Below are positions 1 to 28,536 of a DNA stretch of 28,536 nt, piece after piece. Position 1 is the stretch's first letter; each line of letters starts with the position of its first letter. The translations under genes were made by a program, and so were the position numbers. Origin of the DNA: a virus; the IMG/VR virus record IMGVR_UViG_3300025940_000019, positions 1 through 28,536 of that record; one strand, 5' to 3'. The notes below the pieces were generated by a model. The model searched no databases, was not told where the DNA came from, and saw nothing but the letters and a program-made list of their open reading frames with translations.

Positions 1-99
1 CTGGCGCGCGCCACTGAGTTCGCCGCGATCACCGAACTCGAAAAGTCGGGCGCGAAGATCACGCTTGCCGCGGGCGCCGACGGGCCGACGATCCTGCAG
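1..99. repeat. Terminal direct repeat, left copy (circular assembly overlap)
   Basis: Bases 1-99 are identical to 28438-28536. Because the capsid reading frame is continuous when the copies are merged, this is best read as the overlap of a circular contig and not as a biological terminal repeat. Confidence 0.93.
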
Positions 100-534
100 G
101 CGATCTTCGACGCGAGCGCGCTCGTGTATCAGAACACGGGCGATATCGCGTCGTGGATCGCGATGGGCCCGCTGGGCTGGGCGCGCCTGGGCGGTCTGAC
201 CGACCTCGCCGGGCGTCCGCTCTTCCCCTACCTGGGCGCCTCGAACGCGATGGGTACGGCGTCGGCCGACATGCTGGGCCTGGGCACGGTCGCCGGGCTG
301 CGCCCGATCGTCACGTACGGGATCGACGACGACACGTTCTGGGTCGGCAACTCGTCAGCGTTGGAGTTCTACGAGTACCGATACCCGCTGCTCGAAGCGG
401 TCGAGCCTTCGCTGCTGGGTCGGCAGATCGCGGTCGCCTCGTCGATCGTCGCCTACCGCCCGACGACGAAGGAAGCGGGCCCGTCGAACACCCCGCCCGC
501 TGAGCAGAACGGCGCAGTGCACCTAGCGCCGTGA
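1..534 (+). CDS. Major capsid protein, HK97 fold, 3' part
   Basis: This is the C-terminal 177 codons of the major capsid protein, open from base 1 in frame 1 and ending at TGA 532-534. Joined to the 5' part at 27715-28536 through the identical 99-base ends it gives one frame of 418 residues, a usual size for an HK97-type capsid protein carrying its own N-terminal scaffold-like delta domain. The segment contains the P-domain/A-domain style sequence ITLAAGADGPTILQAIFDA and a tail rich in Pro and Ala. It lies downstream of portal and prohead protease, the standard order. The stop overlaps the GTG start of the next gene. The break is an artefact of where the circle was opened, not a truncation. 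Confidence 0.9.
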   Translation: MARATEFAAITELEKSGAKITLAAGADGPTILQAIFDASALVYQNTGDIASWIAMGPLGWARLGGLTDLAGRPLFPYLGASNAMGTASADMLGLGTVAGLRPIVTYGIDDDTFWVGNSSALEFYEYRYPLLEAVEPSLLGRQIAVASSIVAYRPTTKEAGPSNTPPAEQNGAVHLAP

Positions 535-1016
535 GCACTCGTATCCGCGACCTCGTAGCCGCCGACGCAGCGGCGGGCGGCTCAGTGCCGCCCGACCTGC
601 TCGTGCCGCCTACGGCGACGCTGCTCAGCCCGACGTCGGTCGTCGTGAACGTGGCGACACCTGTGACCGTGACAGGCACGGGCTTCGACGCGGGCACGCG
701 TGTCGTCGTCGACGGCATCGCGCAGCCGACGACCTACCTGTCGCCGACGCAGGTTCGCTATAGCGCCCTCGCCGATGCGGTCGGCGCGCAAGATGTACGC
801 GTGCGGCGGTCGACTGGGCTGCCGTCGAACGCACTCACGCTGACCGTGACCGCGACGCAGGAAGAGCCTGCACCGACGTCGTCGAACACGAAGGGCGAAA
901 TCGTCGCCTGGCTGCTCGCGCACGGCGTCGACCTCGACGAAGCGGCGCTGAACGAACTCACGAAGGCTGAACTGCTCGTGATCGTCGGCGAACTACTGAA
1001 CGACCAGAAAGGCTGA
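531..1016 (+). CDS. IPT/TIG (Ig-like) domain protein, candidate head decoration protein
   Basis: A 161-residue protein with a GTG start overlapping the capsid stop (GTGA). Residues about 25-110 have the look of an IPT/TIG immunoglobulin-like fold: PTATLLSPTSVVVN, then VTGTGFDAGTRVVVDG, then a run of alternating hydrophobic strands ending NALTLTVTA. Residues about 120-161 form a separate helical module (GEIVAWLLAHGVDL and LTKAELLVIVGELL) like the LEM/HeH or SAP-type small domains often tagged onto phage head proteins. Ig-like domains on phage capsids are known to be surface decorations that bind glycans. Its place directly after the capsid gene favours a decoration role, which is inference. 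A head-tail role is the alternative. Confidence 0.7.
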   Translation: MSTRIRDLVAADAAAGGSVPPDLLVPPTATLLSPTSVVVNVATPVTVTGTGFDAGTRVVVDGIAQPTTYLSPTQVRYSALADAVGAQDVRVRRSTGLPSNALTLTVTATQEEPAPTSSNTKGEIVAWLLAHGVDLDEAALNELTKAELLVIVGELLNDQKG

Positions 1017-1019
1017 CGC

Positions 1020-1103
1020 ATGACCGTGCTCGAACCTGAGCCGAAGGTGCCCGAAGACCCTGACGAGCCCGCAGAACCCGCTGAGGGCGACGAGGGCGCC
1101 TGA
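1020..1103 (+). CDS. 27-residue acidic, proline-rich peptide
   Basis: A tiny reading frame beginning ATG at 1020, three bases after the previous stop, and ending TGA at 1101-1103, where TGATG shares a base with the next ATG. The product is almost entirely Glu, Asp, Pro and Ala (start MTVLEPEPKVPEDPDEPAEP). The tight fit between two head genes with coupled stop and start is the main evidence that it is translated. Function is unknown. It may only keep ribosomes moving to the connector gene. Confidence 0.5.
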   Translation: MTVLEPEPKVPEDPDEPAEPAEGDEGA

Positions 1104-1423
1104 TGGCAGTGAATGCCGACCTCGACTCGCTGAAGACCTTCCTGGGGCTTCAGACGACCCGCGACGACGACGTGCTGGGCTGGGACTTAGCCGCGGCGTC
1201 GCGTGTCGTGCAGCAGCGAGTCACGGTCGACGCCTGGGCGACCGACGACGTGCAGATGGCAGTGCTGATGACCGCAGCGCGGCTCTTCGCTCGACGGCGG
1301 TCGCCTGAAGGCGTGGCGGGCTTCGCATCCGATGGGCTCGTCGTGCGGATCGTGACGACCGACCCTGACATTCGGACCCTGCTCGAATGGGCGCTCGACC
1401 TCGACAAGGCGGGCGTCGCGTGA
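1103..1423 (+). CDS. Head-tail connector, gp6-like
   Basis: A 106-residue protein that begins at the TGATG junction. The sequence LDSLKTFLGLQTTRDDDVLGWDL followed by a helical stretch (VQMAVLMTAARLFARR) and the motif SPEGVAGFASDGLVVRIVTTDPDI is typical of small head-tail connectors of the HK97 gp6 type in actinophages, which form a ring under the portal. Position, two genes after the capsid and before the tail terminator candidate, agrees. Assignment rests on pattern and order, not on a catalytic motif. A separate head-closure (gp7-like) protein is not evident. Confidence 0.7.
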   Translation: MAVNADLDSLKTFLGLQTTRDDDVLGWDLAAASRVVQQRVTVDAWATDDVQMAVLMTAARLFARRRSPEGVAGFASDGLVVRIVTTDPDIRTLLEWALDLDKAGVA

Positions 1424-1815
1424 TCAGCGCGCTGCGGGCCGAACTCGCGGCGCTGATCACGGGCGCGCTGCCGAACTTCCCAGTGCATCGCTGGCTGCCC
1501 GAAGACACGCCCGAACTGCCGTGCGCCGTCGTCGGGCGACCCGCGCTCGAAGTCGACCCTGACGCGGCTACCGCCGTGCTCGCCTCGACGACGGTCACTG
1601 TCGTCGGGCGCCGCTACACGAGCGACGGCGCGCAGGAAGAACTCGACGACACCTGCTGGGCCGTGCTGCAGGCGTACAACTTCCTGCGCGGGATGCACAC
1701 GGCGACCGTGCAGCGACTGAACGTGTCGAACGTGCTGCCCGACCTCGTGTCGATCGCGGGCGACGAGTACCCCTGCTACCTCTGCGAAGTGCAAGCGCAC
1801 CTGATCGCCTGCTGA
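1420..1815 (+). CDS. Tail terminator-like protein
   Basis: I take the GTG at 1420, which overlaps the preceding stop as GTGA, giving 131 residues; the frame is open further upstream to 1387 but that would overlap the connector more. It begins ISALRAELAALITGALPNFPVHRW and has the compact alpha/beta character of tail terminator or tail-completion proteins that cap the tail tube at the neck (compare lambda gpU and HK97 gp10-type positions). It sits immediately before the major tail protein, as expected for a terminator. No diagnostic motif is visible, so the role is inferred from size and order. Confidence 0.55.
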   Translation: MISALRAELAALITGALPNFPVHRWLPEDTPELPCAVVGRPALEVDPDAATAVLASTTVTVVGRRYTSDGAQEELDDTCWAVLQAYNFLRGMHTATVQRLNVSNVLPDLVSIAGDEYPCYLCEVQAHLIAC

Positions 1816-1826
1816 AAGGGCCCGCC

Positions 1827-2423
1827 ATGTCGTCAGTAATCCTGCAGATCGAAGAGGGCACCTTCGCCCTGTCGCTCGTCGACAAGGCTGCCGTCGGCTA
1901 CCTCGACACGTGGCAGGCGCCAGGCGGCGCCACGCTCGCCGACGTGACGCTTGCCGACTACGACACGGCGTCGCCCGCCTGGTCGTGCCAGGCGACGTCG
2001 GGCGCGCTCACGGCGACGGCAAACCTGACGACCGTCGAAGTGCCTGCGACGTTCTGCGAGCCCGCCCAGTCGATCCCGCAGCCCGCGTCGACGTCGTTCA
2101 GCCTCGACATGACGTTTCTGCAGGATGCGAACATCGTCGATGGGATCAACCGCTACCTGTTCGAGAACGACACGAAAGAGGCGTACGTCTTCTACGGGCT
2201 GGCAGGCGAAGACCCGCCGAAGATGATCGGCCGCGTGCGGCTGATCGCGGGCACGATCGGCGGCGCTGCTCGAAGCACGCTCACCTTCGACGTGTCGCTG
2301 CCGTTCAGCCGAAAGCCTGATGCTGAGTTCGGCGACACGACGGCGTCGCAGATCGTGAACGGCGACGGCACGGTCGGCCCGCCGCCCGTCGCTACCGCAG
2401 CGGCGTCGTACGCGCCTGCCTGA
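1827..2423 (+). CDS. Major tail tube protein
   Basis: A 198-residue beta-rich protein with a good ribosome site (AAAGGG at 1816-1821) before ATG 1827. The layout resembles actinophage major tail proteins: an N-terminal strand block (SVILQIEEGTFALSLVD), a middle block with DMTFLQDANIVDGINRYLFENDTKEAYVFYG, and a segment about inhomogeneous strands ending LTFDVSLPFSRKPD, with a flexible Ala/Pro C-terminus. It is directly upstream of the tape-measure region. Stop and next start share a base (TGATG at 2421-2425). The identification is from position and general pattern. Confidence 0.78.
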   Translation: MSSVILQIEEGTFALSLVDKAAVGYLDTWQAPGGATLADVTLADYDTASPAWSCQATSGALTATANLTTVEVPATFCEPAQSIPQPASTSFSLDMTFLQDANIVDGINRYLFENDTKEAYVFYGLAGEDPPKMIGRVRLIAGTIGGAARSTLTFDVSLPFSRKPDAEFGDTTASQIVNGDGTVGPPPVATAAASYAPA

Positions 2424-2923
2424 TGCCCGTCAGCGGGCTCGACCGTGTGGCGAAGATCGTGCACGACGTGCACGGCGTCGTCGAGGGCGCAGCCCTGCGT
2501 CGCGTGCAGGCGTACGTCGGCGGTCGCTCGAAAGGGCTCGCCCTGGGGCACGCCGCGAAAGACCTGGGCGGCGATCGCGCGATGCACAACTACAAGGGCG
2601 GCAAGTTGCGCCTGGGCGCGGGCTGGGATGCCGTGCCGGGCGGCGTCGCCGTGAACTTCCGACCTGCGGGCGTGTGGAAACTCGTCGACCAGGGGCGCAA
2701 ACGGTCAGGCGTGATCGTGCCGAAGCGGCGTCGGCGTCGAGGCGCGCGCCCTGGGGCGCGTAGGGCGATCCGCATGCCCGACGGCGGATACGTCGCCTTC
2801 AGTCACTACGGGCCGTCGCGAGGGCTGGGCACCTTCGGCGACAGTGAGCGCGATATCGAACGGCGGGCGGCAGCGAACGTCGACGCGGCGATCGCCCGCG
2901 AACTGCGAAGGGTCGTCGGCTAG
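2423..2923 (+). CDS. Basic 166-residue neck/tail assembly candidate
   Basis: The protein is strongly basic, with a central Arg/Lys run (residues about 90-115, KRRRRRGARPGARRAIR). It has the pattern AGVWKLVDQGRKRSG and a C-terminal block RGLGTFGDSERDIERRAAANVDAAIA, which recall HK97-gp10-type neck proteins (a central 'W.l..G' and a C-terminal helix). However, it sits between the major tail protein and the tape measure, where tail assembly chaperones are normally found. I cannot see a programmed frameshift extension. It may serve as chaperone or neck component; unresolved. Its TAG stop overlaps the GTG start of the tape measure. Confidence 0.5.
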   Translation: MPVSGLDRVAKIVHDVHGVVEGAALRRVQAYVGGRSKGLALGHAAKDLGGDRAMHNYKGGKLRLGAGWDAVPGGVAVNFRPAGVWKLVDQGRKRSGVIVPKRRRRRGARPGARRAIRMPDGGYVAFSHYGPSRGLGTFGDSERDIERRAAANVDAAIARELRRVVG

Positions 2924-4488
2924 TGGCGACCTTCACCGAACGCGTTCAGGTCATCATCGACTTCGTCGAGCGGCGCCAGGGCGGCGACTCGCCCTTCGCG
3001 AAACTGAAGGCTGACGTAGCGGGCGCCGAAGGCGCGATGGGGAAACTGAAGGCGGCGAGCGCGGGCGTCGGCGGCGTGCTGTCGAGCGTCGGCCCGCAGG
3101 TGTGGGCGGCGGCGGGCGCGGCGGCGGTCGGCTTCCTGGTGAAGAGCACGCAGGCGTTCGAGGCGCTCGCCCTGAGCAGTTCTAAGTTCGCTGCGGCGAC
3201 GGGCCTTGCAGTCGACGAGGCGTCACGCTGGGCCGAAGTCGGCGGCGACGTAGGCGTAGGCGTCGACACGCTCACGGTCGCCTTTAACAAACTCGCGACC
3301 ACCGCGGAAAAGTCGCCCGACTCGCTCGCGAAGTACGGCGCGGAGGTCGTGCGCGCGAAAGACGGCACGGTCGACATGAACGCGACGATCCTGAACGTGA
3401 TCGAAGCGCTGAACAAACTCGACCCTGCGAAGCGCGCCGCGGCCATGAAGGAAATCTTCGGCAAGGGCGCCGTCGGCGGCGCGCAACTCTTCAGCCTGTC
3501 GGTCGACGAGATTCGGCAGCGGCTCGCCGACGTCAGCGACTCGAAGGTGATCGACGAGGAAGAGCAGGCGAAGGCTGAGCGCCTGCGCGACGCCGTCGAC
3601 TCGCTGAAGGATGCCTGGGACAACGTCGTACTAACCGTCGGCGAGGTCGGCGCAGGGCTCGCGCCCGCCCTCGAACTGATAGGGCAGATCGTCGGCGGCG
3701 TGACCGACCTCGACGCGAAGTTGCAAGAGGTCACGGGCGGCTTTTCGCTCTTCACGGGCGGGCTGGGCTTCCTGGGGCAAGCCTGGGATGCGATCACGGG
3801 CAAGTCGAAGGATTCGGGCGACGCGCAAAAGCAGGCGCTGACCGACGTCGGCGACGAAGCCGACGACGCGTCGATCAAGGTGCGCGCGATCGGCGACGCC
3901 TGGGATGCGGTCATGGGGAAGATCAAGGGCGAGCAGTCCGACCTGCGTGTCGCCGACCAGTTCGACCAGGCGCGCGACGCGGCGACGAAAGCCTGGGACG
4001 CGGCGTCGAAGGGCGCCGACGACGCGAAGGGGAAGACCCGCGACGCGCGCCAGGCGATCGTCGACACGAAACTCGCCGTCGCCGACTACGCGCGCGAAGT
4101 GCTGGGCCTGCCGCCTGAGCAGGTGACCGACATTCTGGCGAAGATCGACCAGGGCTCGCTTGACTCAGCCGAGAGCCAACTTGACGCACTGGCGAAGACG
4201 CGGCGGGCCGAAATCCTGGTGAAGACCGTGCTGCAGAACACGCTCAGTTTTCTGCCGGGCGGTAAGCCCGTCGTGACGGGCACGGCGGCGAGCGCGGCGC
4301 CGTCGACGATGGTCGCGGCGCAGGCGGGCATGCCGATCGCCCTCGCGGCGCCGATGGTCGCGACCGTGCCCGTGCAGGTGCAGGTGAACCTGCCTGTCGG
4401 CGCCGACGAGTCGCGCACGGTCGCCGCGCTGCATCGCTGGTCGCGGCGTAACGGTTCGCTGCTTAACGCGGGCGTGTGGACAGGATGA
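2923..4488 (+). CDS. Tape measure protein
   Basis: The product is 521 residues from a GTG start. It is Ala/Lys/Asp-rich, long helical, with a hydrophobic stretch at about 50-72 (VLSSVGPQVWAAAGAAAVGF) and the recognisable tape-measure segment with KDGTVDMNATILNVIEALNKL followed by EIFGKGAVGGAQLFSL. It determines tail length by spanning the tube during assembly. At roughly 1.5 angstrom per residue, the usual rule for siphoviruses, the tail would be short, near 75-80 nm (inference). It is small for the family, in keeping with the compact genome. The next gene's ATG overlaps its TGA. Confidence 0.85.
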   Translation: MATFTERVQVIIDFVERRQGGDSPFAKLKADVAGAEGAMGKLKAASAGVGGVLSSVGPQVWAAAGAAAVGFLVKSTQAFEALALSSSKFAAATGLAVDEASRWAEVGGDVGVGVDTLTVAFNKLATTAEKSPDSLAKYGAEVVRAKDGTVDMNATILNVIEALNKLDPAKRAAAMKEIFGKGAVGGAQLFSLSVDEIRQRLADVSDSKVIDEEEQAKAERLRDAVDSLKDAWDNVVLTVGEVGAGLAPALELIGQIVGGVTDLDAKLQEVTGGFSLFTGGLGFLGQAWDAITGKSKDSGDAQKQALTDVGDEADDASIKVRAIGDAWDAVMGKIKGEQSDLRVADQFDQARDAATKAWDAASKGADDAKGKTRDARQAIVDTKLAVADYAREVLGLPPEQVTDILAKIDQGSLDSAESQLDALAKTRRAEILVKTVLQNTLSFLPGGKPVVTGTAASAAPSTMVAAQAGMPIALAAPMVATVPVQVQVNLPVGADESRTVAALHRWSRRNGSLLNAGVWTG

Positions 4489-5888
4489 CCGCCGCCTGGG
4501 TCGACGTGCAGTTGTGGCGGTACAGCGCGCTGCCGAATGAAGGCTGGGACCGCGCGCTCTGGGACGAAGGGCACTGGGACGCGGGCTACCCGACGCCGAA
4601 CGTCGAATGGCTCAGCATCGTGTGCGACGTGCGCGGGCTCGACCTGCGCCGCGGCTCGCAGGGCACGACCGTCGCGGGCGGCAGCGAAACGGGCGTGCTG
4701 ATGCTCGAACTCGACAACCGCGACGGGCAGTGGTCTGAGTTCGTCGACACGGGCGACGGCAACTTCGAGCCCGCCCTGACGAACGGCGTGCAGTTGCGCG
4801 TCATCGCGGGCAACGACGTCGTGCCGCAGGTGACGCTCTTCCGCGGCTGGGTCGAAGCCTGGGTGCAACGCTGGACGAAGACCGACGACAGCGTGCTCGT
4901 GACCTGTACCGACGGCTGGTCTGACCTCGTGCAGCAGGGCAGCGACGTCGAATGGACGCCTGGCGCGATGGGCGAGCAGGTCGGCGAGCGCCTGTGGCGC
5001 CTCGTGCGCATGCGGGCGGGCTGGGACGAAGATCAGTACCCGATCTATCTGCAGCCTGGCAGTGTGCGCCTGCTGGGCTCGTCTGCCTGGGGCAGCGTCG
5101 AGCGCGGGCTGACGCTGCGGCGCACGAGCGTCGCCGACGAAATCCTGCGCACGACGCGCAGCGACGGCGGGATCGCCTTCCTCGACGGCGACGGCGCCTT
5201 CGTGTACCTGAACCGTGGGCGCTGGTCGTCGATCGCGTCGGCGCCGTCGCACGAGCAGGGCCGTGCGCCTCGACCTGCGCAGGGCACAGTGCCGCTCTTC
5301 GGCGACTGGTGCGGCACCCCGCAGTCGAACGAACTGCCGTACACCGACCTCGAATGGGACTACGACGGCACGGGCGCGGCGAACATCGTCGTCGTCGCGA
5401 ATGCCGACGCGCCGCACGAGCGCGACGACGCGGGGAACGTGATCCCTGACGCCTGGGCCCAGTGCGGCTCGACGCAGGTCGACGGGCGCGCCTCGAACCG
5501 TCGCCGCCAGGTGCTGCAGTTGACCGATCTTCGCTTCACGACGCAGGCTGAAGCCGACGCGCTCGCGACGCACTACCTGAACACGTACGCCGAAAAGTTC
5601 GTGAGCGTGCGACGGCTCGAAGTGCGCCCTGAACTCGACGACCGACTGTGGGCGACCGTGCTGGGCCTGCGCCTGCAGGATCACGTGCGCGTGCTGCGCC
5701 GCACGCAGACGAACACGGTCGACATGGAATGCCTGATCGACGGCGCGCAGTATCGGATCACCCCGCTCGAAGTCGTGAACGGGCTGCATTACGGCACGTG
5801 GATCGTCACCTATTCGACGACCGACGCCGTGAGTGAGGTCAGCGACCTGGGCGTGCGGGCGAAGCACTTCGCGGAGGTCGCAGCGTGA
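4485..5888 (+). CDS. Baseplate hub / tail-associated minor tail protein
   Basis: A 467-residue protein. I chose ATG 4485 because it overlaps the tape-measure stop (ATGA); a GTG at 4476 is in frame. The N-terminal half has the hub pattern seen in small actinophages: DVRGLDLRRGSQGTTVAGGSETGVLMLELDNRDGQWSEF, then a strand with VQLRVIA, FRGWVEAWVQRW and VLVTCTDGWSDL. This resembles the gp27/Tal-like hub fold that closes the tube below the tape measure. The C-terminal half ends in strands with MECLIDGAQYRITPLEV and WIVTYSTTDAV. No peptidase or lysozyme module is visible. Confidence 0.72.
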   Translation: MTAAWVDVQLWRYSALPNEGWDRALWDEGHWDAGYPTPNVEWLSIVCDVRGLDLRRGSQGTTVAGGSETGVLMLELDNRDGQWSEFVDTGDGNFEPALTNGVQLRVIAGNDVVPQVTLFRGWVEAWVQRWTKTDDSVLVTCTDGWSDLVQQGSDVEWTPGAMGEQVGERLWRLVRMRAGWDEDQYPIYLQPGSVRLLGSSAWGSVERGLTLRRTSVADEILRTTRSDGGIAFLDGDGAFVYLNRGRWSSIASAPSHEQGRAPRPAQGTVPLFGDWCGTPQSNELPYTDLEWDYDGTGAANIVVVANADAPHERDDAGNVIPDAWAQCGSTQVDGRASNRRRQVLQLTDLRFTTQAEADALATHYLNTYAEKFVSVRRLEVRPELDDRLWATVLGLRLQDHVRVLRRTQTNTVDMECLIDGAQYRITPLEVVNGLHYGTWIVTYSTTDAVSEVSDLGVRAKHFAEVAA

Positions 5889-6571
5889 GCGCCGTCAAAG
5901 ACCCGATCAGCCGCGAAGTCATCGCGTCGTCGCTGGGCGCCCAGTGGAACGACCGTGTCGTGCAGGTCTTCGCGACGCTCGCCGAACTGCGGTCGGGCAC
6001 GTACTCAGGCTGGGCGCCGATCCGCGGCAGCCTCGCCTACGCCGAAGACGTGCGCGCGCTCTACGAGGTCGTCAACTTCGACGGCGGCGGCGCGCCGATC
6101 TGGTGGCCTGTCGCGGCACGAGGCGCCATCGCGCACTGGCCCAACGCGCACCCACCGAACACGGGCCTGATCACGATGCCGACGTCGGGCGCCATCACGA
6201 ACATTGCGAAGTTGCCAGGCGAAGTGCGCTACGGGCGCTCGTACGGCTTCGCCTGGCAGTGCACGATCTACACGCAGTCGGGCAACCTGGGCCTGTGGCA
6301 CGGCGAGGTCTTCATTCAGCGCGCCGCGAATCCTGGCTACGCGATCAGCACTCTGCTGCCGACAGGCTGGATTCGCGAAGCGGGGCAGGGCTGGGCGGCG
6401 GGCGTGTACAGCAGCAGCGAAATGTCGGGCTTCAGCATCATCGGCCCGATGGCAGAAAACGAACCGTCGGCTGAGTTCGTGTGGCGAGGCGCCGCGTACC
6501 CAGGGCTGCCCGACGTCGTGTCGTGCAATCCGTCACTGTCGATCGTCGAACTAGGAGGGGGCGCCGCGTGA
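5885..6571 (+). CDS. Minor tail protein
   Basis: A 228-residue protein from GTG 5885 (GTGA overlap with the hub stop). It begins with a helix-rich segment (DPISREVIASSLGAQWNDRV) followed by a beta-rich body with many Gly, Trp and Tyr residues (GGGAPIWWPVAARGAIAHW, YGFAWQCTIYTQSGNLGLW). Its place between hub and fibres suggests a baseplate or fibre-attachment subunit. I do not recognise a specific family. Its last codons carry the ribosome site for the following gene. Confidence 0.55.
   Translation: MSAVKDPISREVIASSLGAQWNDRVVQVFATLAELRSGTYSGWAPIRGSLAYAEDVRALYEVVNFDGGGAPIWWPVAARGAIAHWPNAHPPNTGLITMPTSGAITNIAKLPGEVRYGRSYGFAWQCTIYTQSGNLGLWHGEVFIQRAANPGYAISTLLPTGWIREAGQGWAAGVYSSSEMSGFSIIGPMAENEPSAEFVWRGAAYPGLPDVVSCNPSLSIVELGGGAA
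6552..6558 (+). promoter_or_regulatory. Strong Shine-Dalgarno inside the upstream gene
   Basis: TAGGAGG followed by GGG lies within the last codons of the minor tail gene and 9-10 bases before GTG 6568. It supports the GTG start of the 65-residue protein. Confidence 0.6.
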
Positions 6572-6765
6572 GCGACATACCTGTACCGCCCGAAGGGACA
6601 CCTGGCGCGCCGTGGGACGTGCCGCCCGACGTGCTCGCCGCGGGCGGCAACCCTGTGCCTGGGCAGTCGCCGCTCGCGCCGAACACTGACCAGCGGCTGA
6701 GCGCGATCGAAGCGACCGCCGCCGACACAAACCGTCGCGTGACCGACCTCGAAGTCAGCACGTGA
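6568..6765 (+). CDS. Small coiled-coil tail protein, 65 residues
   Basis: GTG 6568 overlaps the previous stop (GTGA) and has the AGGAGG site upstream. The first 40 residues are Pro/Gly-rich and probably unstructured (PVPPEGTPGAPWDVPPDV). The last 25 form a heptad-like helix (DQRLSAIEATAADTNRRVTD). Such short coiled coils next to fibre genes can serve as trimerisation pieces or fibre chaperones; the role is inferred. Confidence 0.55.
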   Translation: MSDIPVPPEGTPGAPWDVPPDVLAAGGNPVPGQSPLAPNTDQRLSAIEATAADTNRRVTDLEVST

Positions 6766-6766
6766 C

Positions 6767-20781: not shown

Positions 20782-21461
20782 TGGGCCGCTCGAAATACAC
20801 GCAGCCGATCAGCGTGAAGATCACGCAGGCGAACTGGGATCGGGCGAAGCAGTCGAACTCAGGCGCCTGCCTGATCGCCGACGCGATCAAAGAGCAGTAC
20901 CCGCACCTGTCGCGCGTGTCGGTCGACATGGTCACGATCCGCGTCACCGACCAGGCGCGAGGGCTGCGGCTGCTCTACCTCACCCCGCCGCCTGCGCAGC
21001 ACCTGCTGCTGAGTTTCGACCAGGCATGGCCGAAGCCGATCGACGAGATAACCGTGCGCCGTCCCGTGCAGGTGACGCGGATCGTCGCCCAGCGCCCAGG
21101 TAGGAAGGCGGCGAACGAAGTGCGTCGCCGCGATCGCCTCGACGTGCTCGAAGCGAAGATCGCGAAGGGCGACGCGCTGACGCGGAACGAAAAAATCTCG
21201 CTGACGATGCTGCGCAAAGCGCCGCCTGCGCCACCGCGGCCGACGTCGAAGGGCCCGCGCGAAGTGCACCTGGACAGCGACGGCACGCCGACGATCGTCG
21301 GCGGCGAACTTCCGCGCCTGGGCGCGCCGCACCCGAACCTGCTGCGGGGCACGAATCGGCACTACGGCGTGAAACTGGCGCAGCCTGGGCAGGCGTTCGC
21401 CGACGCCGTGAACGCAGAGGTCGTGCGACGGCTCGCGGAGCGCGAAGGCGACGACCAGTGA
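20781..21461 (+). CDS. Conserved-type early protein, 226 residues
   Basis: ATG 20781 shares a base with the preceding stop (TGATG). The start ISVKITQANWDRAKQSNSGA, followed by CLIADAIKEQYP and VSVDMVTIRVTD, then LYLTPPPAQHLLLSFDQAW, matches a pattern I know from many actinophage early regions. The function has not been assigned as far as I recall. The C-terminal half is basic and Pro-rich. It stands between the SSB-like protein and the zinc proteins, so a replication role is plausible. Confidence 0.65.
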   Translation: MGRSKYTQPISVKITQANWDRAKQSNSGACLIADAIKEQYPHLSRVSVDMVTIRVTDQARGLRLLYLTPPPAQHLLLSFDQAWPKPIDEITVRRPVQVTRIVAQRPGRKAANEVRRRDRLDVLEAKIAKGDALTRNEKISLTMLRKAPPAPPRPTSKGPREVHLDSDGTPTIVGGELPRLGAPHPNLLRGTNRHYGVKLAQPGQAFADAVNAEVVRRLAEREGDDQ

Positions 21462-21715
21462 GCGCGCCGCGTCTGCCGAAGGACTGGGCAGGGCGCGAGG
21501 TCGAGTGCGAGCACTTCAGTTCGTGCGGCAACCTCGTGCGCATCGGCGCCCCTGGCACGATGACGTATACCGACGGCTGGGCCCTGCACCGTACGAAGGG
21601 CGGCACTAACGCGGTCTTCGCGCAGCGATGGATCGACCGTCACTGCTGCTGGGACTGCACGACGAAACTGCGGGCAGGGATCGACCCGCGGCAGTTGACG
21701 CTCTTCGGGCCGTGA
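21458..21715 (+). CDS. Cys-rich 85-residue protein
   Basis: GTG 21458 overlaps the previous stop (GTGA). It has ECEHFSSCG and later RHCCWDCTTK, making a Cys/His set fit for one zinc ion. No basic stretch is dominant. It is one of three consecutive zinc-type genes in the early operon. Function unknown. Confidence 0.55.
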   Translation: MSAPRLPKDWAGREVECEHFSSCGNLVRIGAPGTMTYTDGWALHRTKGGTNAVFAQRWIDRHCCWDCTTKLRAGIDPRQLTLFGP

Positions 21716-21891
21716 CGGGCTGGTGCCGCGTCTGCGGGCTCGAATACGCCTGCTATCGCGACTGGCTGCTGCATCGCTACGAGCACGAGCACGACCGCCC
21801 TGCGTCGCCGTCGTGGAACGATCGTGTCGCCCTGCTGCCGCGTCCGCCCCGCGGTCGCAGGGCGACACCTGAACACGACGACGCGGCGTGA
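21712..21891 (+). CDS. 59-residue protein with a classical C2H2 zinc finger
   Basis: I chose GTG 21712 (GTGA overlap with the previous stop). Residues 5-25 read CRVCGLEYACYRDWLLH and on to a second His: C5-x2-C8-x12-H21-x3-H25. Tyr12 sits in the usual aromatic place and Trp18 in the leucine place. This is exactly the spacing of a TFIIIA-type C2H2 finger, rare in bacteria. A basic, Pro-rich tail (LLPRPPRGRRATPEHDD) follows. It probably binds DNA or a partner protein; target unknown. Confidence 0.6.
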   Translation: MTGWCRVCGLEYACYRDWLLHRYEHEHDRPASPSWNDRVALLPRPPRGRRATPEHDDAA

Positions 21892-22286
21892 CGGTTGCGG
21901 TCTGCTTCGCGCGCCCTGATCACGGGCCTGGCTTCGCGCTGCTGCACTGCGGCGACTGCGGCTACACGTGGGTCGATCGTGTCGACCTGGGAATCGCTCG
22001 CACGGTCTTCGGCGCACGAGTGCCGCCCTGCCCGCCCTGCGCCGACGAGGCGGCGCTACAGGGGCGCCTGACGGCACTGTGGCGCCCTGAAGACGACATG
22101 CCGTCGGGCTGGCTGGTCTGCCCGCAGTGCGGGCTCTACCTGAAGGCGCACGACCGCGCTGCCGACGATCCCGTGCACGGCTCGTGCTGCGGCGTGCACG
22201 GGCCCGACCGAAGGTGCAACGGGCGCCTGCTCGAAGTCAGTCGAGGCGAAATGGAACGCGAATGGTCACGAAGCGCGAAGCGGTAG
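21888..22286 (+). CDS. 132-residue double zinc-ribbon protein
   Basis: GTG 21888 overlaps the previous stop. Two Cys sets are clear: HCGDCGYTW with PPCPPCADE (first ribbon, about 20-53) and LVCPQCGLYLKAH with SCCGVHGPDRRC (second, about 76-112). The fold probably binds nucleic acid. The start of the ATPase gene lies 25 bases inside its 3' end, so expression of the two is linked. No catalytic motif. Confidence 0.6.
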   Translation: MTVAVCFARPDHGPGFALLHCGDCGYTWVDRVDLGIARTVFGARVPPCPPCADEAALQGRLTALWRPEDDMPSGWLVCPQCGLYLKAHDRAADDPVHGSCCGVHGPDRRCNGRLLEVSRGEMEREWSRSAKR

Positions 22287-23503
22287 AGCAGTGGCACGCC
22301 GACCAGGAACGGCGCAACGGCAGCCCTGACGCAGGAAGCGACCGTGGGCTGATGCTCGTGCAGGGCGACGAGGTCGCGACGAGGCGTGTCGCCTGGCTAT
22401 GGCGAGGGCGCGTACCGCTACGCGGGCTCACCATCGCGGCAGGGCCCGAAAAGTTGGGCAAGTCGACGGCGCTGATCTGGCTCGCCGCGCGCACGACGCG
22501 CGGCGAACTGCCGGGCGACTTCGAGGGCCGACCGATGACGGTCGCCTACGTGTCGGGCGAAGACGACGCCGAAAGCGTGCTGGTGCCGCGGATGGTGGCG
22601 GCAGGCGCCGACCTGCAGCGCGTGCTCGTGATGAATCCCGACCCAGACGCCGAACTCTTCGCCGTCGAGCACCTGACGACGATCGTCGACCTGGGGCTCG
22701 TCGTGCTCGACCCGCTGAGCATGTACCTCGACGTGCCCGCCATGAACGAACACGGCGAAGGCGTCACGCGCAACGCGCTGCGCCCTTTCGTGCGCCTGGC
22801 GCAGCAGCGAGGGCTCGCCGTGACGGGCGTGCGGCACCTGAACAAGGGCTGGGCGGGCGGCTCGCCCTTCGACGCGATCATGGGTAGTCGAGCGTTCAGC
22901 GCGGCGGCGAGGTCGATCCTGCTCTTCACGAAAGACGTCGAGCGTCCCGAACTCGAAGGCGGCGGGCTGATCTTCGCCCGTGGCAACCTCGCCGCAGCCG
23001 CCCCTGCCCAGCGGTACGCGCTGCAGATCGTCGACGTCGAGTGCGACGACGGCAGCACGAGCGAAGTACCCCGCTTCGCCCTCGACGAGGGCATCGTCGG
23101 CGTCAGCCTCGAAGCAGCGATGCAGTCAGGCGGCGACTCGACTCAGCACGACGACGCCGTCGCCTTCCTGCTCGACCTGCTGGGCGATGGGCCTGTCGAC
23201 ACGAAGACCGTGCAGCAGCGGGCCCGTGACGCGGGCCTGTCATGGCGCAGGGTCGAGCGCGCTAAGACCGTCGCAGGCGTGAAGGCTGAGCGCGTCGGCG
23301 GGCTGGGTGCTGAAGGTCGCTGGCAGTGGCGGCTCGCTAAGTCCGCAGGTGTGCAGCCCATACCCAGAGATAGTGGTCTTAGCGGAAACGTGGCGGTCTT
23401 AGGTACCCCGCCCTCCCCGCCGATGCCGTGCCGCGACCTCGACTGCCGCCTGACCGCGGACGCGAGCGGCTACTGCTACCGCCACCGCGAAGAGCCGTTC
23501 TAG
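22262..23503 (+). CDS. RepA-like (AAA_25) ATPase/helicase
   Basis: I chose ATG 22262, giving 413 residues; longer openings only shadow the zinc gene. A RecA-type core is clear: Walker A G61PEKLGKST, Walker B VDLGLVVLD150, and the sensor-like RHLNKGWAGG (191-200). The C-terminal part (from about 295) has a winged-helix look (LLDLLGDGPVDTKTVQQRA). The last 25 residues have a zinc knuckle, C390-x4-C395-x9-C405-x2-H408, and end EEPF. RepA/DnaB-type ATPases open or unwind the origin. A CTAAG cluster begins within its 3' third. Confidence 0.82.
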   Translation: MVTKREAVEQWHADQERRNGSPDAGSDRGLMLVQGDEVATRRVAWLWRGRVPLRGLTIAAGPEKLGKSTALIWLAARTTRGELPGDFEGRPMTVAYVSGEDDAESVLVPRMVAAGADLQRVLVMNPDPDAELFAVEHLTTIVDLGLVVLDPLSMYLDVPAMNEHGEGVTRNALRPFVRLAQQRGLAVTGVRHLNKGWAGGSPFDAIMGSRAFSAAARSILLFTKDVERPELEGGGLIFARGNLAAAAPAQRYALQIVDVECDDGSTSEVPRFALDEGIVGVSLEAAMQSGGDSTQHDDAVAFLLDLLGDGPVDTKTVQQRARDAGLSWRRVERAKTVAGVKAERVGGLGAEGRWQWRLAKSAGVQPIPRDSGLSGNVAVLGTPPSPPMPCRDLDCRLTADASGYCYRHREEPF

Positions 23504-23533
23504 GTGCATTGTCCCAGCGTGTACCTAAGACCG
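23394..23533. repeat. 13-bp inverted repeat with 114-base spacer
   Basis: CGGTCTTAGGTAC (23394-23406) is the exact reverse complement of GTACCTAAGACCG (23521-23533). It includes two of the CTAAG units and brackets the stop of the ATPase gene. Confidence 0.8.
23501..23527 (+). terminator. Imperfect hairpin at the ATPase stop, possible terminator
   Basis: TAGGTGCA (23501-23508) pairs with TGTACCTA (23520-23527) at seven of eight positions, loop 11 bases. It begins on the TAG stop of the ATPase gene. It could end the early transcript, or only reflect the repeat structure of the origin candidate. Confidence 0.35.
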
Positions 23534-23801
23534 TTGCACCTGCACCTAAGCCCGCCACCCTAAGAAACACACATCTAGCAGGTACTACTACTAAGACAGC
23601 CATGCTCAGGACACTACGCGTGCGCGCGCGCGAGGCGCCCGACGCTGCAGAAAACGCGTCGAGGTCGAACGCGAAACGCGCGTCGAGGCGCCGCCGCCCG
23701 CTCCCAGTTTTCTTGACCCTCACCCCGCACCCCGCCCTTCGTCGCCGTGACTGTGTGCGCCCAGCCTCGACGCCTGGTCGAGAGTCAGGCATGATTCCCA
23801 C
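23504..23801. other. 298-bp gene-free stretch between early and packaging genes
   Basis: It holds four of the CTAAG copies, the right arm of the inverted repeat, an alternating CG run (around 23618-23632), and TTTTCTTGACC (23709-23718), a good -35-like TTGACC. The -35-like box is followed by CACCCCGC twice (23721-23735), but no TANNNT box at the right distance. Frames here look like shadows. It may combine origin, late promoter and cos site, as it directly precedes HNH and terminase. Confidence 0.5.
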
Positions 23802-24095
23802 GTGCACGAATCGCCGCGCACCGCGCGCAAGCGCAACCGTCACGCCCGCGGCTATGGCGAGCGGCACCAGCGCGAGCGCCGTCGGCTGCTTCGAGGCGAT
23901 CCCGTGTGCGAACTCTGCTTCAGGGCGAAAGCGACGACGCTCGACCACGATCCGCCGCTTTCGACCTTCGCCGATCCGCTGCAGTGGTCAGGGCGGCTGA
24001 TCCCTGCCTGCCAGCCGTGCCAGTCGCGCCAGGGGCAAGCGATCGCGCAGGCACGTCGGCTTCGCCGTGGCCCGAAGGGCACCCGCGTATGGTGA
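23802..24095 (+). CDS. HNH endonuclease (packaging-associated)
   Basis: The product is 97 residues from GTG 23802. A basic N-terminus (RKRNRHARGYGERHQRERRR) precedes the HNH core: C36-x2-C39 in VCELCFRAK, LDHDPP with H49, and C70-x2-C73 in LIPACQPCQSRQ. The last catalytic position, normally His or Asn in C..CN..K, is Gln here, so it is a slightly diverged form. HNH proteins next to large terminases in HK97-type phages help cut at cos. The terminase ATG overlaps its end by seven bases. Confidence 0.82.
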   Translation: MHESPRTARKRNRHARGYGERHQRERRRLLRGDPVCELCFRAKATTLDHDPPLSTFADPLQWSGRLIPACQPCQSRQGQAIAQARRLRRGPKGTRVW

Positions 24096-25486
24096 CGATT
24101 GCGCCGCCCGCGCCGCGTCTGGTGAACGTCGCTAGCGGGCGGCGCACCCGCGGGAACCGTGTCGTCGACCGCATGCGGCAGATCGGCTTCGAGCCGCACG
24201 CCTGGCAAGTGCTGCTCAGCGATCTGTTCCTGCAGGAAGGGTCGAACGGGCGCCTGCACTATCGCAACTGCGGCGCGCTGGTCAGCCGCCAGTCGGGCAA
24301 GACCGCATGGGCGGCGGCACGCGTCGCGCAGCAGTGCCTCGACTACCCGCGCCAGCACGTCGCCTTCACGTCGCAGGATCGCATTAACGCCGTGCGGTCA
24401 TGGCAAGAGCACGTCGACCTGATCGTCGACTCGCCTCTCGGCAGCGAGGTGCAGTGGCTCGTGCGGGGCTCAGGGCGTGAGTGCCTGACGTTCGCGAACG
24501 GTTCCTGGTATCGGCCCGTTACCCCTAACCGCTACGGCGCGCGCGGGCTGTCGCTCGACCTGGCGATCGTCGACGAGGCGCTGACGCACTCGCAGGCGCT
24601 GCTCGCCGCGCTGGGCCCGACGCTCGCCGCGCGCCCTGGCTCGCAGTTCGTCACGATCAGCAACGCGGGCACTGAAGACTCAGTGCTGCTGCAGGCAATG
24701 CGCGAGCAGGCGCTGACGGCGCTCGACGATCCGAACTCGAAGCGGGCCTGGTGCGAGTGGTCTGCCGATCCGACCGTGCCTGGCTTCAGCACGTACGACG
24801 AAGACGTCTGGCACGCGGTCATGCCGACGCTGGGGCAGCCGAACGGCGTCGACCTCGACTTCGTGCGCAGCATGGCGCAGGTCATGGACGAGGTCGACTT
24901 TCGGCGCGAGTTCCTGTGCGTGCCGTCGACGGCGTCCGACGCGATCGTGATACCCGCAGAGGTCTGGCGCGCGCTCTACCGCACTGACGTCGTGATCGGC
25001 GACAGCGTCGCGCTGGGTATCGACATGACGCCTGAACGTGACGCTGCCGCCCTCGTCGCCGCGGGCAAGGTCGGCGACTACATCGCGTGCGAGGTCGTGC
25101 AGTGCGAAGAGTCGACCGACTGGCTGCTGGCCCGAACGGTCGAAGTCGCGCAGCGATGGCAGGCGCCTGTCGTCGTCGACAACGGCGCGAGCGTCGCGTC
25201 GCTCGTGCCGCTGCTCGAAGCCGCCGAAGTCGAGGTGATCCTGACGACGGGCCGTCAGTACGCGAGGGCGTGCGGCTATTTCTACGACCGTGCCCTCGAC
25301 GGGCACCTGACGCACCTAGATCAGTGGCAACTGAACGACGCCGTCGGCGCCGCCGTGAAGCGACCACTGGGCGACGCCTGGGCGTGGAATCGCCGCGGCG
25401 GCGTGAACCTGACCCCGCTCGTCGCCGCGACCCTGGCTGCCTGGGTCGCTGGGACGCGTCCGATGCTTACCCCGCAGGTGCACTGA
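24089..25486 (+). CDS. Terminase large subunit
   Basis: The product is 465 residues; I chose ATG 24089, seven bases inside the HNH gene's end. It is the packaging motor and nuclease. The ATPase part shows S66RQSGKT (Walker A) and LDLAIVDEA with D162-E163 (Walker B). The RNase H-like nuclease part shows three acidic residues in order: D312 in LGIDMTPERDAA, D364 in VVVDNG and D429 in GDAWAWNRRGG. Length and domain order match phage terminases. No small terminase is recognised nearby. The portal ATG shares a base with its stop (TGATG). Confidence 0.92.
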   Translation: MVTIAPPAPRLVNVASGRRTRGNRVVDRMRQIGFEPHAWQVLLSDLFLQEGSNGRLHYRNCGALVSRQSGKTAWAAARVAQQCLDYPRQHVAFTSQDRINAVRSWQEHVDLIVDSPLGSEVQWLVRGSGRECLTFANGSWYRPVTPNRYGARGLSLDLAIVDEALTHSQALLAALGPTLAARPGSQFVTISNAGTEDSVLLQAMREQALTALDDPNSKRAWCEWSADPTVPGFSTYDEDVWHAVMPTLGQPNGVDLDFVRSMAQVMDEVDFRREFLCVPSTASDAIVIPAEVWRALYRTDVVIGDSVALGIDMTPERDAAALVAAGKVGDYIACEVVQCEESTDWLLARTVEVAQRWQAPVVVDNGASVASLVPLLEAAEVEVILTTGRQYARACGYFYDRALDGHLTHLDQWQLNDAVGAAVKRPLGDAWAWNRRGGVNLTPLVAATLAAWVAGTRPMLTPQVH

Positions 25487-26772
25487 TGACTGAGTACGAA
25501 ACGCCTTCAGGGCTCGCTGTCGTCGAGCGCGCGCAGACCCCGCCGCCTGACGCTGAGCCGCCCGTGAACGTGCACGGGCATGACTCAGCCCTGCCGCACG
25601 ACGAGCACTCGTACGTCATGTACCCGGCAGTGTCGCCGCCGCTGCAGGCGTCGCGCTGGGACGGCTGGCCCGTCGGCTGGGTGCCGCCGTGGGACAACTG
25701 GTCGAGCGGGCTCGCTCAGCGCGTGTCGACGGTCTTCGCCTGCATCGACCTGAACGCGCGCACGCTCGCCACGATGCCGCCCTACGTGACGCGCGACGGG
25801 CAGACGCTGTCGCCGCCGACCTGGCTGCGCAACCCTGAGCCTGAGATTTACACGGGCTGGGTCGAGTTCCTGAAACTGTGCGTCGCCTCGTACCAGTTGC
25901 GCGGCGAGGTCTTCATATGGGCTACCGCGCACTTCGCTGACGGCTTTCCAGCGCGCTTCGTCGTGCTGAATCCTGACTGGGTAAGCGTCGACTTCGTCGA
26001 CGGGCGGCGTGAGTACGCGATCGGCGGCGAACGGCTCGACACGCGTGACGTGCTGCACGTGCGGTACTCGACATGGCCTGGCGACGCACGAGGGCATGGC
26101 CCGCTCGAAGCGGGCGCGCGGAACCTGCTCAGCGCGGAAGCGATGGAACGGTACGGCGCGAACCTGGCGACACGCGGCGGCGTGCCGTGGGCCGTGCTGA
26201 AGCATCCTGCGAACCTGTCGGCGACGCAGGCGCAGACCTTCCGCGACCGCTGGGTCGCGGGCTCGCAGTCACGCGACGGCGCCCCTGCCGTGCTGTCGGG
26301 CGGGATCGACCTCGAAGTGCTGAGCCTCAGCCCGAAAGACATGGCCCTGCTCGACCTGCGCCAGTTCGACGAAGGGCGAATCTGCGCACTGCTGGGCGTG
26401 CCGCCGTTCCTGGTGGGCCTGCCGTCGGGCGGCGACAGCATGACGTACTCGAACGTGTCGAGCCTCTTCGACTTTCACTGGCGAGCGACGCTGCGCCCGA
26501 TCGCGACGGCGCTCAGCGACGCATTGTCGAACTGGGCCCTGCCGGGCCGAACGGGCGTCGAGTTCAACCGCGACGAGTACGTGCGCCCTGGGCTAGGCGA
26601 ACGCGCGCAGGCGTACTCAGTGCTGCACAACATCGTCGACCCTGTGAGCGGCGCGCGGGCGATCACGGTCGACGAGATTCGAGCCGCCGAACGGCTCGAA
26701 GATTCCGACAACGTCGACAGCGAAGGCGTCGTCGCGCCCGCCGCCGTCGTGCTGTCAGGCGGCGACCACTGA
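25486..26772 (+). CDS. Portal protein, HK97 family
   Basis: The product is 428 residues from ATG 25486. The portal pattern is clear: VSTVFACIDLNARTLATMPP, TGWVEFLKLCVASYQLRGEV, the wing strands (VVLNPDWVSVDFVDG), DTRDVLHVRYSTWPGDARGHGP, and the stem/crown region LDLRQFDEGRICALLGVPPF with YSNVSSLFDFHWRATLRP. Twelve copies normally form the DNA gate at one head vertex. It follows the large terminase and precedes the protease. The C-terminus (SDNVDSEGVVAPAAVV) is flexible. Confidence 0.92.
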   Translation: MTEYETPSGLAVVERAQTPPPDAEPPVNVHGHDSALPHDEHSYVMYPAVSPPLQASRWDGWPVGWVPPWDNWSSGLAQRVSTVFACIDLNARTLATMPPYVTRDGQTLSPPTWLRNPEPEIYTGWVEFLKLCVASYQLRGEVFIWATAHFADGFPARFVVLNPDWVSVDFVDGRREYAIGGERLDTRDVLHVRYSTWPGDARGHGPLEAGARNLLSAEAMERYGANLATRGGVPWAVLKHPANLSATQAQTFRDRWVAGSQSRDGAPAVLSGGIDLEVLSLSPKDMALLDLRQFDEGRICALLGVPPFLVGLPSGGDSMTYSNVSSLFDFHWRATLRPIATALSDALSNWALPGRTGVEFNRDEYVRPGLGERAQAYSVLHNIVDPVSGARAITVDEIRAAERLEDSDNVDSEGVVAPAAVVLSGGDH

Positions 26773-26948
26773 TGAGCGAAGAGCGCGCGATCGCCGAAGT
26801 GCTCGCCGGGTACGAGCCCGCGCGCCCGACGCCTGGCGCCCTCGACGCGATGGCGGCGACGGTCGACGCGATACACGTGCGCGAACTGCGCAGGGCGTGC
26901 GGCTGCCCGAACTGCCGCCTAGCACTCGAAGGGGCACGACATGCCTGA
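26772..26948 (+). CDS. 58-residue Cys-knuckle protein
   Basis: ATG 26772 shares a base with the portal stop (TGATG). The product is helical (MSEERAIAEVLAGYEP, ALDAMAATVDAIHVRELRR) and ends with CGCPNCRLALEG, a C-x-C-x2-C knuckle with little else to complete a zinc site in one chain; a dimer could share one. It is placed between portal and protease. Function unknown. Confidence 0.5.
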   Translation: MSEERAIAEVLAGYEPARPTPGALDAMAATVDAIHVRELRRACGCPNCRLALEGARHA

Positions 26949-27585
26949 CACTCTGCTGCGAGCCTTCGGCGCGAACCTGCGCCTGGCGCCCGACACGTCG
27001 ACGCCTGACGCTCGACTGCTCGAAGGGCGCCTGGTGCCGTACGGCGAAACGGCTGACGTCGTCGACGAAGGGCCCGACGGCGTGCAGCGGTACCGCGAAG
27101 CGTTTCAGGCGGGCGCCTTCAGCCGCCAGGTCGCGGCGGCGACGACGAACGGCGGCGTGGCACGGCGGATCGCCTTCTACGACCAGCACCATGACGGGCT
27201 GGGCAAGGTCGGGCACCTGCTCGCCTTCGACGAGCGACCCGACGGTCTGTACGGCACGATGCGCGTGCTGCCGCGCTACGTCGCCGACGTCGAAACGATG
27301 CTCAGCGACGGCGTCGACGGGCTCAGCGTCGGCTTCGTGCCGCTGAAGACGATGCGCCTCGACGGCGTGCGCGTCCGCACCAGCGCGCATCTTGTGCACG
27401 TCGCGCTCGAAGCACTGGGCGCCTACGAGTCGGCGCGCGTGCTGGCCCTGCGGGCCGCGGCCGACGAGGTCGACGAGGTCGAGCAGGCGGCGCGCGAGCG
27501 CCAGGCGTTCGACGACGAACTCGCTGCCTGGCTGGCTCAGGCTGACCAGCGAAACGAAACACTTCACGAGCGCCTTCGGGCGTGA
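26941..27585 (+). CDS. Prohead protease, HK97 family
   Basis: The product is 214 residues from ATG 26941, overlapping the previous gene by eight bases. It cleaves the capsid N-terminal domain during head maturation. The herpesvirus-assemblin-like active site is visible: H84-D85 in YDQHHDGLGKVG and nucleophile S129 in VDGLSVGFVP. The start (LLEGRLVPYGETADVVD) and FQAGAFSRQ fit the family. A helical C-terminal extension (VDEVEQAARERQAFDDELAA) may interact with the scaffold. It precedes the capsid gene, as expected. Confidence 0.9.
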   Translation: MPDTLLRAFGANLRLAPDTSTPDARLLEGRLVPYGETADVVDEGPDGVQRYREAFQAGAFSRQVAAATTNGGVARRIAFYDQHHDGLGKVGHLLAFDERPDGLYGTMRVLPRYVADVETMLSDGVDGLSVGFVPLKTMRLDGVRVRTSAHLVHVALEALGAYESARVLALRAAADEVDEVEQAARERQAFDDELAAWLAQADQRNETLHERLRA

Positions 27586-27586
27586 C

Positions 27587-27745
27587 ATGATTCGACTGAT
27601 TCCTGAAGCGGCACCCCGCTCGACGCAGGTCGGCACCCCGCCATGTACGGCGGCACCCCGCTCGTCGCAGGTCGGCACCCCGCAGGCAACCCTCACGCGA
27701 AAGGTTCCTGAACGATGCCTGATGCCCTGCTCGAACGGCTGGTGA
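27587..27745 (+). CDS. Possible 52-residue repeat peptide overlapping the capsid start
   Basis: A frame from ATG 27587, one base after the protease stop, reads through the tandem repeat and ends 31 bases inside the capsid gene. It encodes two copies of a 14-residue unit (AAPRSTQVGTPPCT and AAPRSSQVGTPQAT). The 42-base period is a multiple of three, which would suit coding, but there is no ribosome site. It may be a leader that couples capsid translation or simply an open frame through regulatory DNA. Confidence 0.3.
   Translation: MIRLIPEAAPRSTQVGTPPCTAAPRSSQVGTPQATLTRKVPERCLMPCSNGW
27608..27683. repeat. Tandem repeat, 42-bp period, before the capsid gene
   Basis: Two 34-base copies (27608-27641 and 27650-27683) differ at one position and are separated by eight bases. 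Each holds GGCACCCCGC twice, so that decamer occurs at 27610, 27632, 27652 and 27674, at steps of 22, 20 and 22 bases, about two helix turns apart. On the minus strand this puts four GGGG runs at regular spacing. Located 31 bases upstream of the capsid ATG. Confidence 0.85.
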
Positions 27746-28536
27746 GCGAACGCGACCAGCGGCTCGCCCTCATTCACTCAGTCACGCAGACCGCCGCCGA
27801 CGGCGACCGTGACCTGAGCGACCAGGATCGCGAAACGATCACCGCGGCTCGCACCCGCGTCGCCGCGATCGACGCGCAGGTCGACCTGCTCGCCGACGAC
27901 CTCGAAATGTCCGACACGGTCCGCGATCGCCTGTCGCGGCTGCAGCCTGGGACGGTCAGCGCGGGCACGGTCCAGTACCGCAGCGCGGGCGAACTGCTGC
28001 ACGACATGCTGCACCAGCACGACCGCGAGGCGCAGCACCGTTACGGCCGCTTCCTGTCGCGCGCCGCGGAGCACATGGGCACGACGGCGGCGAACACTGT
28101 GCCCGTCGCTGGTGGCTTCGGCGCGCTGCTCGTCGCACCTGTGATCGGGCCCGTCGCCGACGTGTCGCCGCAGGGGCGCCCGTTCCTGTCGGCGATGGGC
28201 GTCACGCCTGCGCCGTCCGCGATGAGTTTTATGCGCCCTCGCATCGTGGACCCTGACCTCGACACGGGCGTCGCGCCGCAGTCGAAGGAAAAGGCCGAAC
28301 TGGTCAGCAAAAAGTTCGACTTCGCTGCCGACACGCTGACGCTCGTCACGGTCGGCGGGTACCTGAACGTGTCGCAGCAACTGCAGTCGCTGGTGCCGTC
28401 GAGCCTCGACGTGATCGTCGGGCAGATGAACAAGCGTCTGGCGCGCGCCACTGAGTTCGCCGCGATCACCGAACTCGAAAAGTCGGGCGCGAAGATCACG
28501 CTTGCCGCGGGCGCCGACGGGCCGACGATCCTGCAG
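27715..28536 (+). CDS. Major capsid protein, HK97 fold, 5' part
   Basis: ATG 27715 has AAAGG ten bases upstream. The frame runs off the window end and continues at base 100 after merging the identical ends (418 residues in all). Residues 1-100 are a charged helical delta domain (LLERLVSERDQRLALIHSVT, DRETITAARTRVAAID) that acts as internal scaffold and is removed by the prohead protease. The body then shows GGFGALLVAPVIGPVADV, PFLSAMGVTPAPSAMSF and GGYLNVSQQLQSLVPSSLDVI, the N-arm and E-loop/spine pattern of HK97 capsids. The 3' part is at 1-534. Confidence 0.92.
   Translation, partial: MPDALLERLVSERDQRLALIHSVTQTAADGDRDLSDQDRETITAARTRVAAIDAQVDLLADDLEMSDTVRDRLSRLQPGTVSAGTVQYRSAGELLHDMLHQHDREAQHRYGRFLSRAAEHMGTTAANTVPVAGGFGALLVAPVIGPVADVSPQGRPFLSAMGVTPAPSAMSFMRPRIVDPDLDTGVAPQSKEKAELVSKKFDFAADTLTLVTVGGYLNVSQQLQSLVPSSLDVIVGQMNKRLARATEFAAITELEKSGAKITLAAGADGPTILQ
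28438..28536. repeat. Terminal direct repeat, right copy
   Basis: Identical to bases 1-99; the sign of a circular contig. The codon phase of the capsid gene agrees across both copies. Confidence 0.93.

What the first reader, a model, noticed from the sequence alone, without database searches (positions are those of the whole stretch)
1..28536. The tetramer AGCT is absent from the whole genome
I read every line for AGCT, including block joins, and found none. About 85 would be expected if bases were independent at about two-thirds G+C (my estimate). The absence is enforced by synonymous codons: Glu-Leu is GAA-CTN, not GAG-CTN; Lys-Leu is AAA-CTN or AAG-TTG; Gln-Leu is CAA-CTN or CAG-TTG; Ser-Phe is AGT-TTC. 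TCGA, GATC and GTAC, of the same base composition, are common. This looks like long selection by host restriction at AGCT or a longer site containing it, or by a host defence that reads this motif. The phage encodes no visible methyltransferase.
Basis: partly seen in the sequence, partly recalled or inferred. Interest (0 to 1): 0.78.

Follow-up and report, generated by a model that had tools for sequence, protein, structure and literature searches.

The report
Phage genome purged of AGCT sites
A complete 28-kilobase soil phage genome contains no copy of the four-letter word AGCT, where about 80 would be expected, almost certainly because bacteria it infects cut DNA at that word; this is a clean and extreme case of a known phage strategy, not a new mechanism.

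Summary
AGCT occurs 0 times in 28,536 bases, against 81 expected (maximal-order Markov), 78 (codon-phase-aware Markov) or 66 (synonymous-codon shuffle). It is the only tetramer that is absent with an expectation above 5. The window is a complete circular temperate siphophage genome (28,437 bp plus a 99-bp end overlap). The loss is written in synonymous codons: Glu before CTN is GAA 36, GAG 0, but 200 to 192 elsewhere. The closest relative (73% portal identity, also about 69% G+C) keeps AGCT, and none of its 26 sites in shared genes survives in the window. Thirty related viral contigs sum to 1352 seen of 1456 expected. Forty-five Actinomycetota genomes sampled are not AGCT-free (observed/expected 0.46-1.89). 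Mutational bias is therefore rejected. Two other soil phages, at most distantly related, show the same loss (5/58 and 1/21). One sits in an Acidimicrobiia bin whose other contigs have normal AGCT. Best explanation: repeated exposure to a Type II restriction enzyme cutting AGCT (AluI specificity). The complete loss in every context excludes a longer site as sole cause. Host and enzyme were not found. CCGG, GGCC, CTCGAG, TTCGAA and CCGAG are also depleted, suggesting several restriction systems.

The parts
1..28536 (.). Complete circular temperate siphophage genome with no AGCT; 28,437 unique bases plus a 99-base terminal overlap
   Evidence: Counts; 99-base direct terminal overlap; gene models cover 93%
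24089..25483 (+). Terminase large subunit (longest ORF begins at 23906), used as one of the orthologues for the AGCT comparison
   Evidence: PHROG 9, E 5e-57; 72% identical to L004
25486..26769 (+). Portal protein (longest ORF begins at 25087), used to find relatives
   Evidence: PF04860, E 9e-57; 73-75% identical in L004 and L005
14645..16180 (+). Large serine integrase: the phage is temperate
   Evidence: PHROG 95, E 1e-84; PF00239 and PF07508
10129..11001 (+). Endolysin (amidase), used to reach phages that may share hosts
   Evidence: PHROG 880, E 6e-24; found L119-L123, of which L122 is AGCT-poor
21888..22283 (+). Small zinc-ribbon protein with a sub-threshold resemblance to the restriction alleviation protein Lar
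   Evidence: PF14354 at 20.4 bits, below the curated cut-off of 28.6; not accepted as Lar

Best explanation
The phage lineage has been purged of AGCT by repeated infection of bacteria carrying a Type II restriction-modification system whose endonuclease cuts unmethylated AGCT (AluI specificity). Each site is a chance of being cut on entry, so synonymous changes that destroy sites were favoured until none remained, and new ones are removed. The phage has no detected methyltransferase of its own, so site loss is its visible protection. Shown: the absence, its action at the DNA level across codon phases and genome modules, its absence from near relatives, and its recurrence in other phages. Inferred: the enzyme, its host, and that selection is still acting.
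For: AGCT is 0 against 66-87 expected under five nulls. It is a perfect palindrome lost in every flanking context and codon phase. Codon choice switches only where AGCT would arise: GAG 0 of 36 before CTN against 192 of 392 elsewhere, AAG 0 of 11 against 145 of 165, CAG 0 of 10 against 292 of 311, GCT 0 of 93 after NNA against 82 of 1048, AGC 0 of 56 before T against 131 of 415. Of 26 AGCT sites in L004 orthologues and 115 aligned sites in L005, none is conserved, whereas TCGA keeps 63 of 118 and GTAC 19 of 43 relative to L004; the commonest replacement is synonymous AACT. One-step neighbours AACT (153/63) and AGCA (277/195) are in excess. L147, a P22-portal phage, has 5/58; L136, a phage contig in an Acidimicrobiia bin, has 1/21, while three other contigs of that bin have 46/47, 54/53 and 18/20. 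Rusinov et al. 2018 (PMC6286503) report that avoidance concerns orthodox Type II sites and that complete or near-complete elimination is seen in about one-tenth of viral genomes.
Against: No host is identified and no AGCT-specific enzyme was found. The phage is temperate, and temperate phages eliminate sites less often than non-temperate ones (PMC6286503). Several other words are depleted too, some not palindromic (CCGAG, and GGA at 286/866), so some other compositional force acts on this genome as well.
Confidence: 0.85

Rival explanations
1. Mutational or codon-usage bias of the host, shared by the phage, makes AGCT rare.
For: The genome has other strong compositional oddities, such as GGA/TCC at one third of expectation and context-dependent codon choice.
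Against: A null keeping codon usage and proteins still expects 66, and a codon-phase Markov null 78. The component trinucleotide is common: AGC (and its complement GCT) is 1134 seen of 1176 expected. Forty-five Actinomycetota genome samples range from 0.46 to 1.89 observed/expected. The relative with the same G+C keeps AGCT.
Confidence: 0.03
2. A different host defence that reads AGCT (for example a nuclease of a non-Type II system) drives the loss.
For: The enzyme is unknown. CCGAG, an asymmetric word of the kind read by Type III or BREX systems, is also nearly gone (5/91).
Against: AGCT is a short perfect palindrome, the usual form of an orthodox Type II site. Sites of Type I and IIG systems are not avoided and Type III sites very rarely (PMC6286503).
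Confidence: 0.06
3. The phage itself makes an AGCT-cutting nuclease that destroys host DNA, and lacks the site to protect itself.
For: Many small genes have no annotation.
Against: No endonuclease family appears among the listed hits; the one PD-(D/E)XK match is taken to be the replication-module exonuclease (PHROG 466; PF12705). Two other AGCT-poor phages that are at most distantly related would each need such a gene.
Confidence: 0.03
4. AGCT is avoided for a regulatory or methylation-reading reason: the host methylates AGCT and the mark, not cutting, is harmful to the phage.
For: Orphan AGCT N4-cytosine methyltransferases without a nuclease are known in archaea (PMC10609329; PMC6329791). Two Acidimicrobiia bins carry a conserved N4/N6-type methyltransferase of unknown specificity with no nuclease seen beside it.
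Against: A regulatory mark would not be expected to remove every site from every module. Archaea are unlikely hosts for a siphophage with terminase similarity to actinophages.
Confidence: 0.03

Closest known systems
Restriction-site avoidance in phage genomes (Rusinov et al. 2018, PMC6286503)
   Same: Near-complete or complete elimination of an orthodox Type II palindrome from a dsDNA phage genome, with no phage methyltransferase detected.
   Different: The host and its enzyme are unknown here, and the phage is temperate, a class in which that study found elimination to be less frequent.
Phages lacking GATC or GGCC, such as Staphylococcus phage K and Bacillus phages (from memory, not checked here)
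   Same: Total absence of one tetramer palindrome across a whole genome.
   Different: The motif is AGCT and the host is uncultured. This comparison is a recollection, not a test.
AluI restriction-modification system (AGCT; specificity from general knowledge)
   Same: Recognises the eliminated word.
   Different: No AluI-like enzyme was found or tested; only the specificity is inferred.

Membership tests
Type II restriction-site avoidance by a phage | Site far below a composition-corrected expectation | tested here: met
   0 against 66-87
Type II restriction-site avoidance by a phage | Site is a short palindrome recognised by an orthodox Type II enzyme | tested here: met
   AGCT is its own reverse complement and is lost in all contexts; AluI specificity is from general knowledge
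Type II restriction-site avoidance by a phage | Avoidance is not shared by the host chromosome | tested here: inconclusive
   True host unknown; 45 Actinomycetota genome samples are not AGCT-free, and in bin G176 the phage contig is depleted while three other contigs are not
Type II restriction-site avoidance by a phage | A host restriction-modification system of that specificity exists | not testable with these tools
   Host not identified; portal searches found only one close relative in genomes, a 4.2-kb contig in an Acidimicrobiia bin
Type II restriction-site avoidance by a phage | No phage methyltransferase that would make avoidance unnecessary | tested here: met
   No methyltransferase among the families listed by Pfam, PHROGs or PADLOC for 46 predicted proteins; Pfam and PHROGs lists are cut to the first 25 families

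The most novel reading that the evidence does not exclude
AGCT is read by a defence other than an orthodox Type II system, widespread in uncultured soil Actinomycetota, or by a nuclease carried by the phage itself, and several soil phages of different lineages have lost the word in response.
Probability: 0.08. Interest if true: 0.7.

Novelty: new member of a known kind. Interest (0 to 1): 0.36.

Why it matters
Complete loss of a word predicted to occur about 80 times is among the cleanest signatures that a DNA-cutting defence can leave, and here it comes from a phage known only from metagenomes. Recurrence in two other phages suggests that AGCT restriction is a recurring pressure, and suggests Acidimicrobiia as one place to look for the enzyme. 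It also shows that a temperate phage can eliminate a site completely.

Tried and rejected
Phage collection DNA search: no match. Tail protein search in phages: no match. Integrase, exonuclease and primase scans of viral contigs gave only the near-identical L001 or nothing. Terminase similarity to actinophages is only about 30% and does not name a host. The genome scan for portal relatives gave one contig; class and phylum searches gave only distant others. A Lar restriction-alleviation match was rejected as below its curated cut-off. The Acidimicrobiia methyltransferase was dropped as evidence because its specificity cannot be read from sequence. Tetranucleotide correlation with sampled genomes did not single out a host. 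One fetch failed because of a handle not given out, one search pattern was too short, one centre was given in the wrong form, one region was a base too long, and one script stopped on a masked contig and was rerun.

Full report
OBSERVATION. AGCT is absent from all 28,536 bases. The window is a complete circular genome: its first and last 99 bases are identical, leaving 28,437 unique bases. Expected counts are 81.3 at order 0 and 87.2 at order 1, 81.0 by maximal-order Markov, 77.6 by a Markov model that keeps codon phase and 65.5 when synonymous codons are shuffled with proteins and codon usage fixed. No other tetramer with an expectation above 5 is absent in the codon-phase model; AATT is also absent but only 4 are expected. 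The gap is even across head, tail, lysis, lysogeny, replication and packaging modules, with 8 to 18 expected in each.

WHAT IT IS. The genome encodes a terminase, portal, capsid proteins, tape measure protein, endolysin, a large serine integrase, an exonuclease and a primase-like protein: a temperate siphophage. Terminase similarity is to actinophages at about 30%. A second record, L001, covers 11.6 kb at 99.9% identity and is AGCT-free too, but it is the same phage and not independent evidence. Gene models are my own codon-usage-based predictions.

SELECTION ON THE DNA WORD. Codon choice changes only where AGCT would be formed. Glu before CTN is GAA 36 and GAG 0, elsewhere 200 and 192. Lys before CTN is AAA 11 and AAG 0, elsewhere 20 and 145. 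Gln before CTN is CAA 10 and CAG 0, elsewhere 19 and 292. Ala after NNA never uses GCT (0 of 93), elsewhere 82 of 1048. Ser before T never uses AGC (0 of 56), elsewhere 131 of 415.

RELATIVES. L004 (73% portal identity, 68.6% G+C) has AGCT 32 of 42 expected, and L005 (74%) has 126 of 123. In aligned orthologues, 26 AGCT sites of L004 and 115 of L005 have no survivor in the window; control words such as TCGA (63 of 118) and GTAC (19 of 43) survive relative to L004. The commonest replacement is AACT with the protein unchanged. Across 30 viral contigs of the portal family AGCT sums to 1352 against 1456 expected. Three isolated actinophages also keep it (124/86, 163/124, 200/176). The loss therefore most likely arose in the window's own lineage.

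CHROMOSOMES AND OTHER PHAGES. In 45 samples from Actinomycetota genomes the ratio runs from 0.46 to 1.89. Two other phages show the same gap: L147, with a P22-type portal and 51% G+C, 5 of 58; and L136, a phage contig in Acidimicrobiia bin G176, 1 of 21, with GGCC 8 of 60. Three other contigs of that bin have 46/47, 54/53 and 18/20. Binning of phage contigs is uncertain, so this only suggests a host group.

MECHANISM. A Type II restriction enzyme cutting AGCT explains a short palindrome lost in every context, by synonymous change, in some phages and not in the sampled genomes. A longer recognition site alone would leave AGCT in other contexts. No methyltransferase appears among the listed families of the phage, with the limit that the Pfam and PHROGs lists are cut at 25. 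Published work finds avoidance mainly for orthodox Type II sites, elimination in about a tenth of viral genomes, and less elimination in temperate phages (PMC6286503). The enzyme and host are inferred, not found.

FURTHER DEPLETION. CCGG 19/157, GGCC 123/311, CCGAG 5/91, CTCGAG 1/29 and TTCGAA 0/15 suggest more than one restriction system. GGA/TCC at one third of expectation is not explained by this.

VERDICT. The finding is correct and its main interpretation is well supported. It is an extreme example of a known kind of anti-restriction adaptation.

Noticed in passing
L005-L008, L014-L023, L026-L031: Most relatives of the window's portal family are strongly CpG-depleted (observed/expected 0.15-0.73) with excess CpA/TpG, at 49-64% G+C, while the window and L004 are CpG-rich (1.39, 1.25). 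The cause is unknown.
   Followed up: partly
window 1-28536: Several other words are far below expectation: CCGG 19/157 (16 of the 19 in GCCGGG or its complement), GGCC 123/311, CCGAG 5/91, CTCGAG 1/29, TTCGAA 0/15, ATCGAG 0/16, while CTCGAA is doubled (85/40).
   Followed up: partly
window 1-28536: The trinucleotide GGA/TCC is at one third of expectation (286/866) and is depleted in several flanking contexts; unexplained.
   Followed up: partly
L147 1-16865: Virus contig IMGVR_UViG_3300015371_000275, with a P22-type portal, has AGCT 5 of 58 expected.
   Followed up: yes
L136 1-11006: Phage contig binned with Acidimicrobiia genome G176 has AGCT 1/21 and GGCC 8/60, unlike three other contigs of the bin.
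   Followed up: yes
L151 1453-2331: Methyltransferase of the N4/N6 family, 88% identical in two Acidimicrobiia bins with similar neighbours and found at 53-69% identity in about 30 of 198 Actinomycetota genomes; no nuclease seen beside it, specificity unknown.
   Followed up: partly
L156 1-40000: Arthrobacter phage Huntingdon has CTCGAG 0 of 15 expected in its first 40 kb, a possible separate case of site loss.
   Followed up: no
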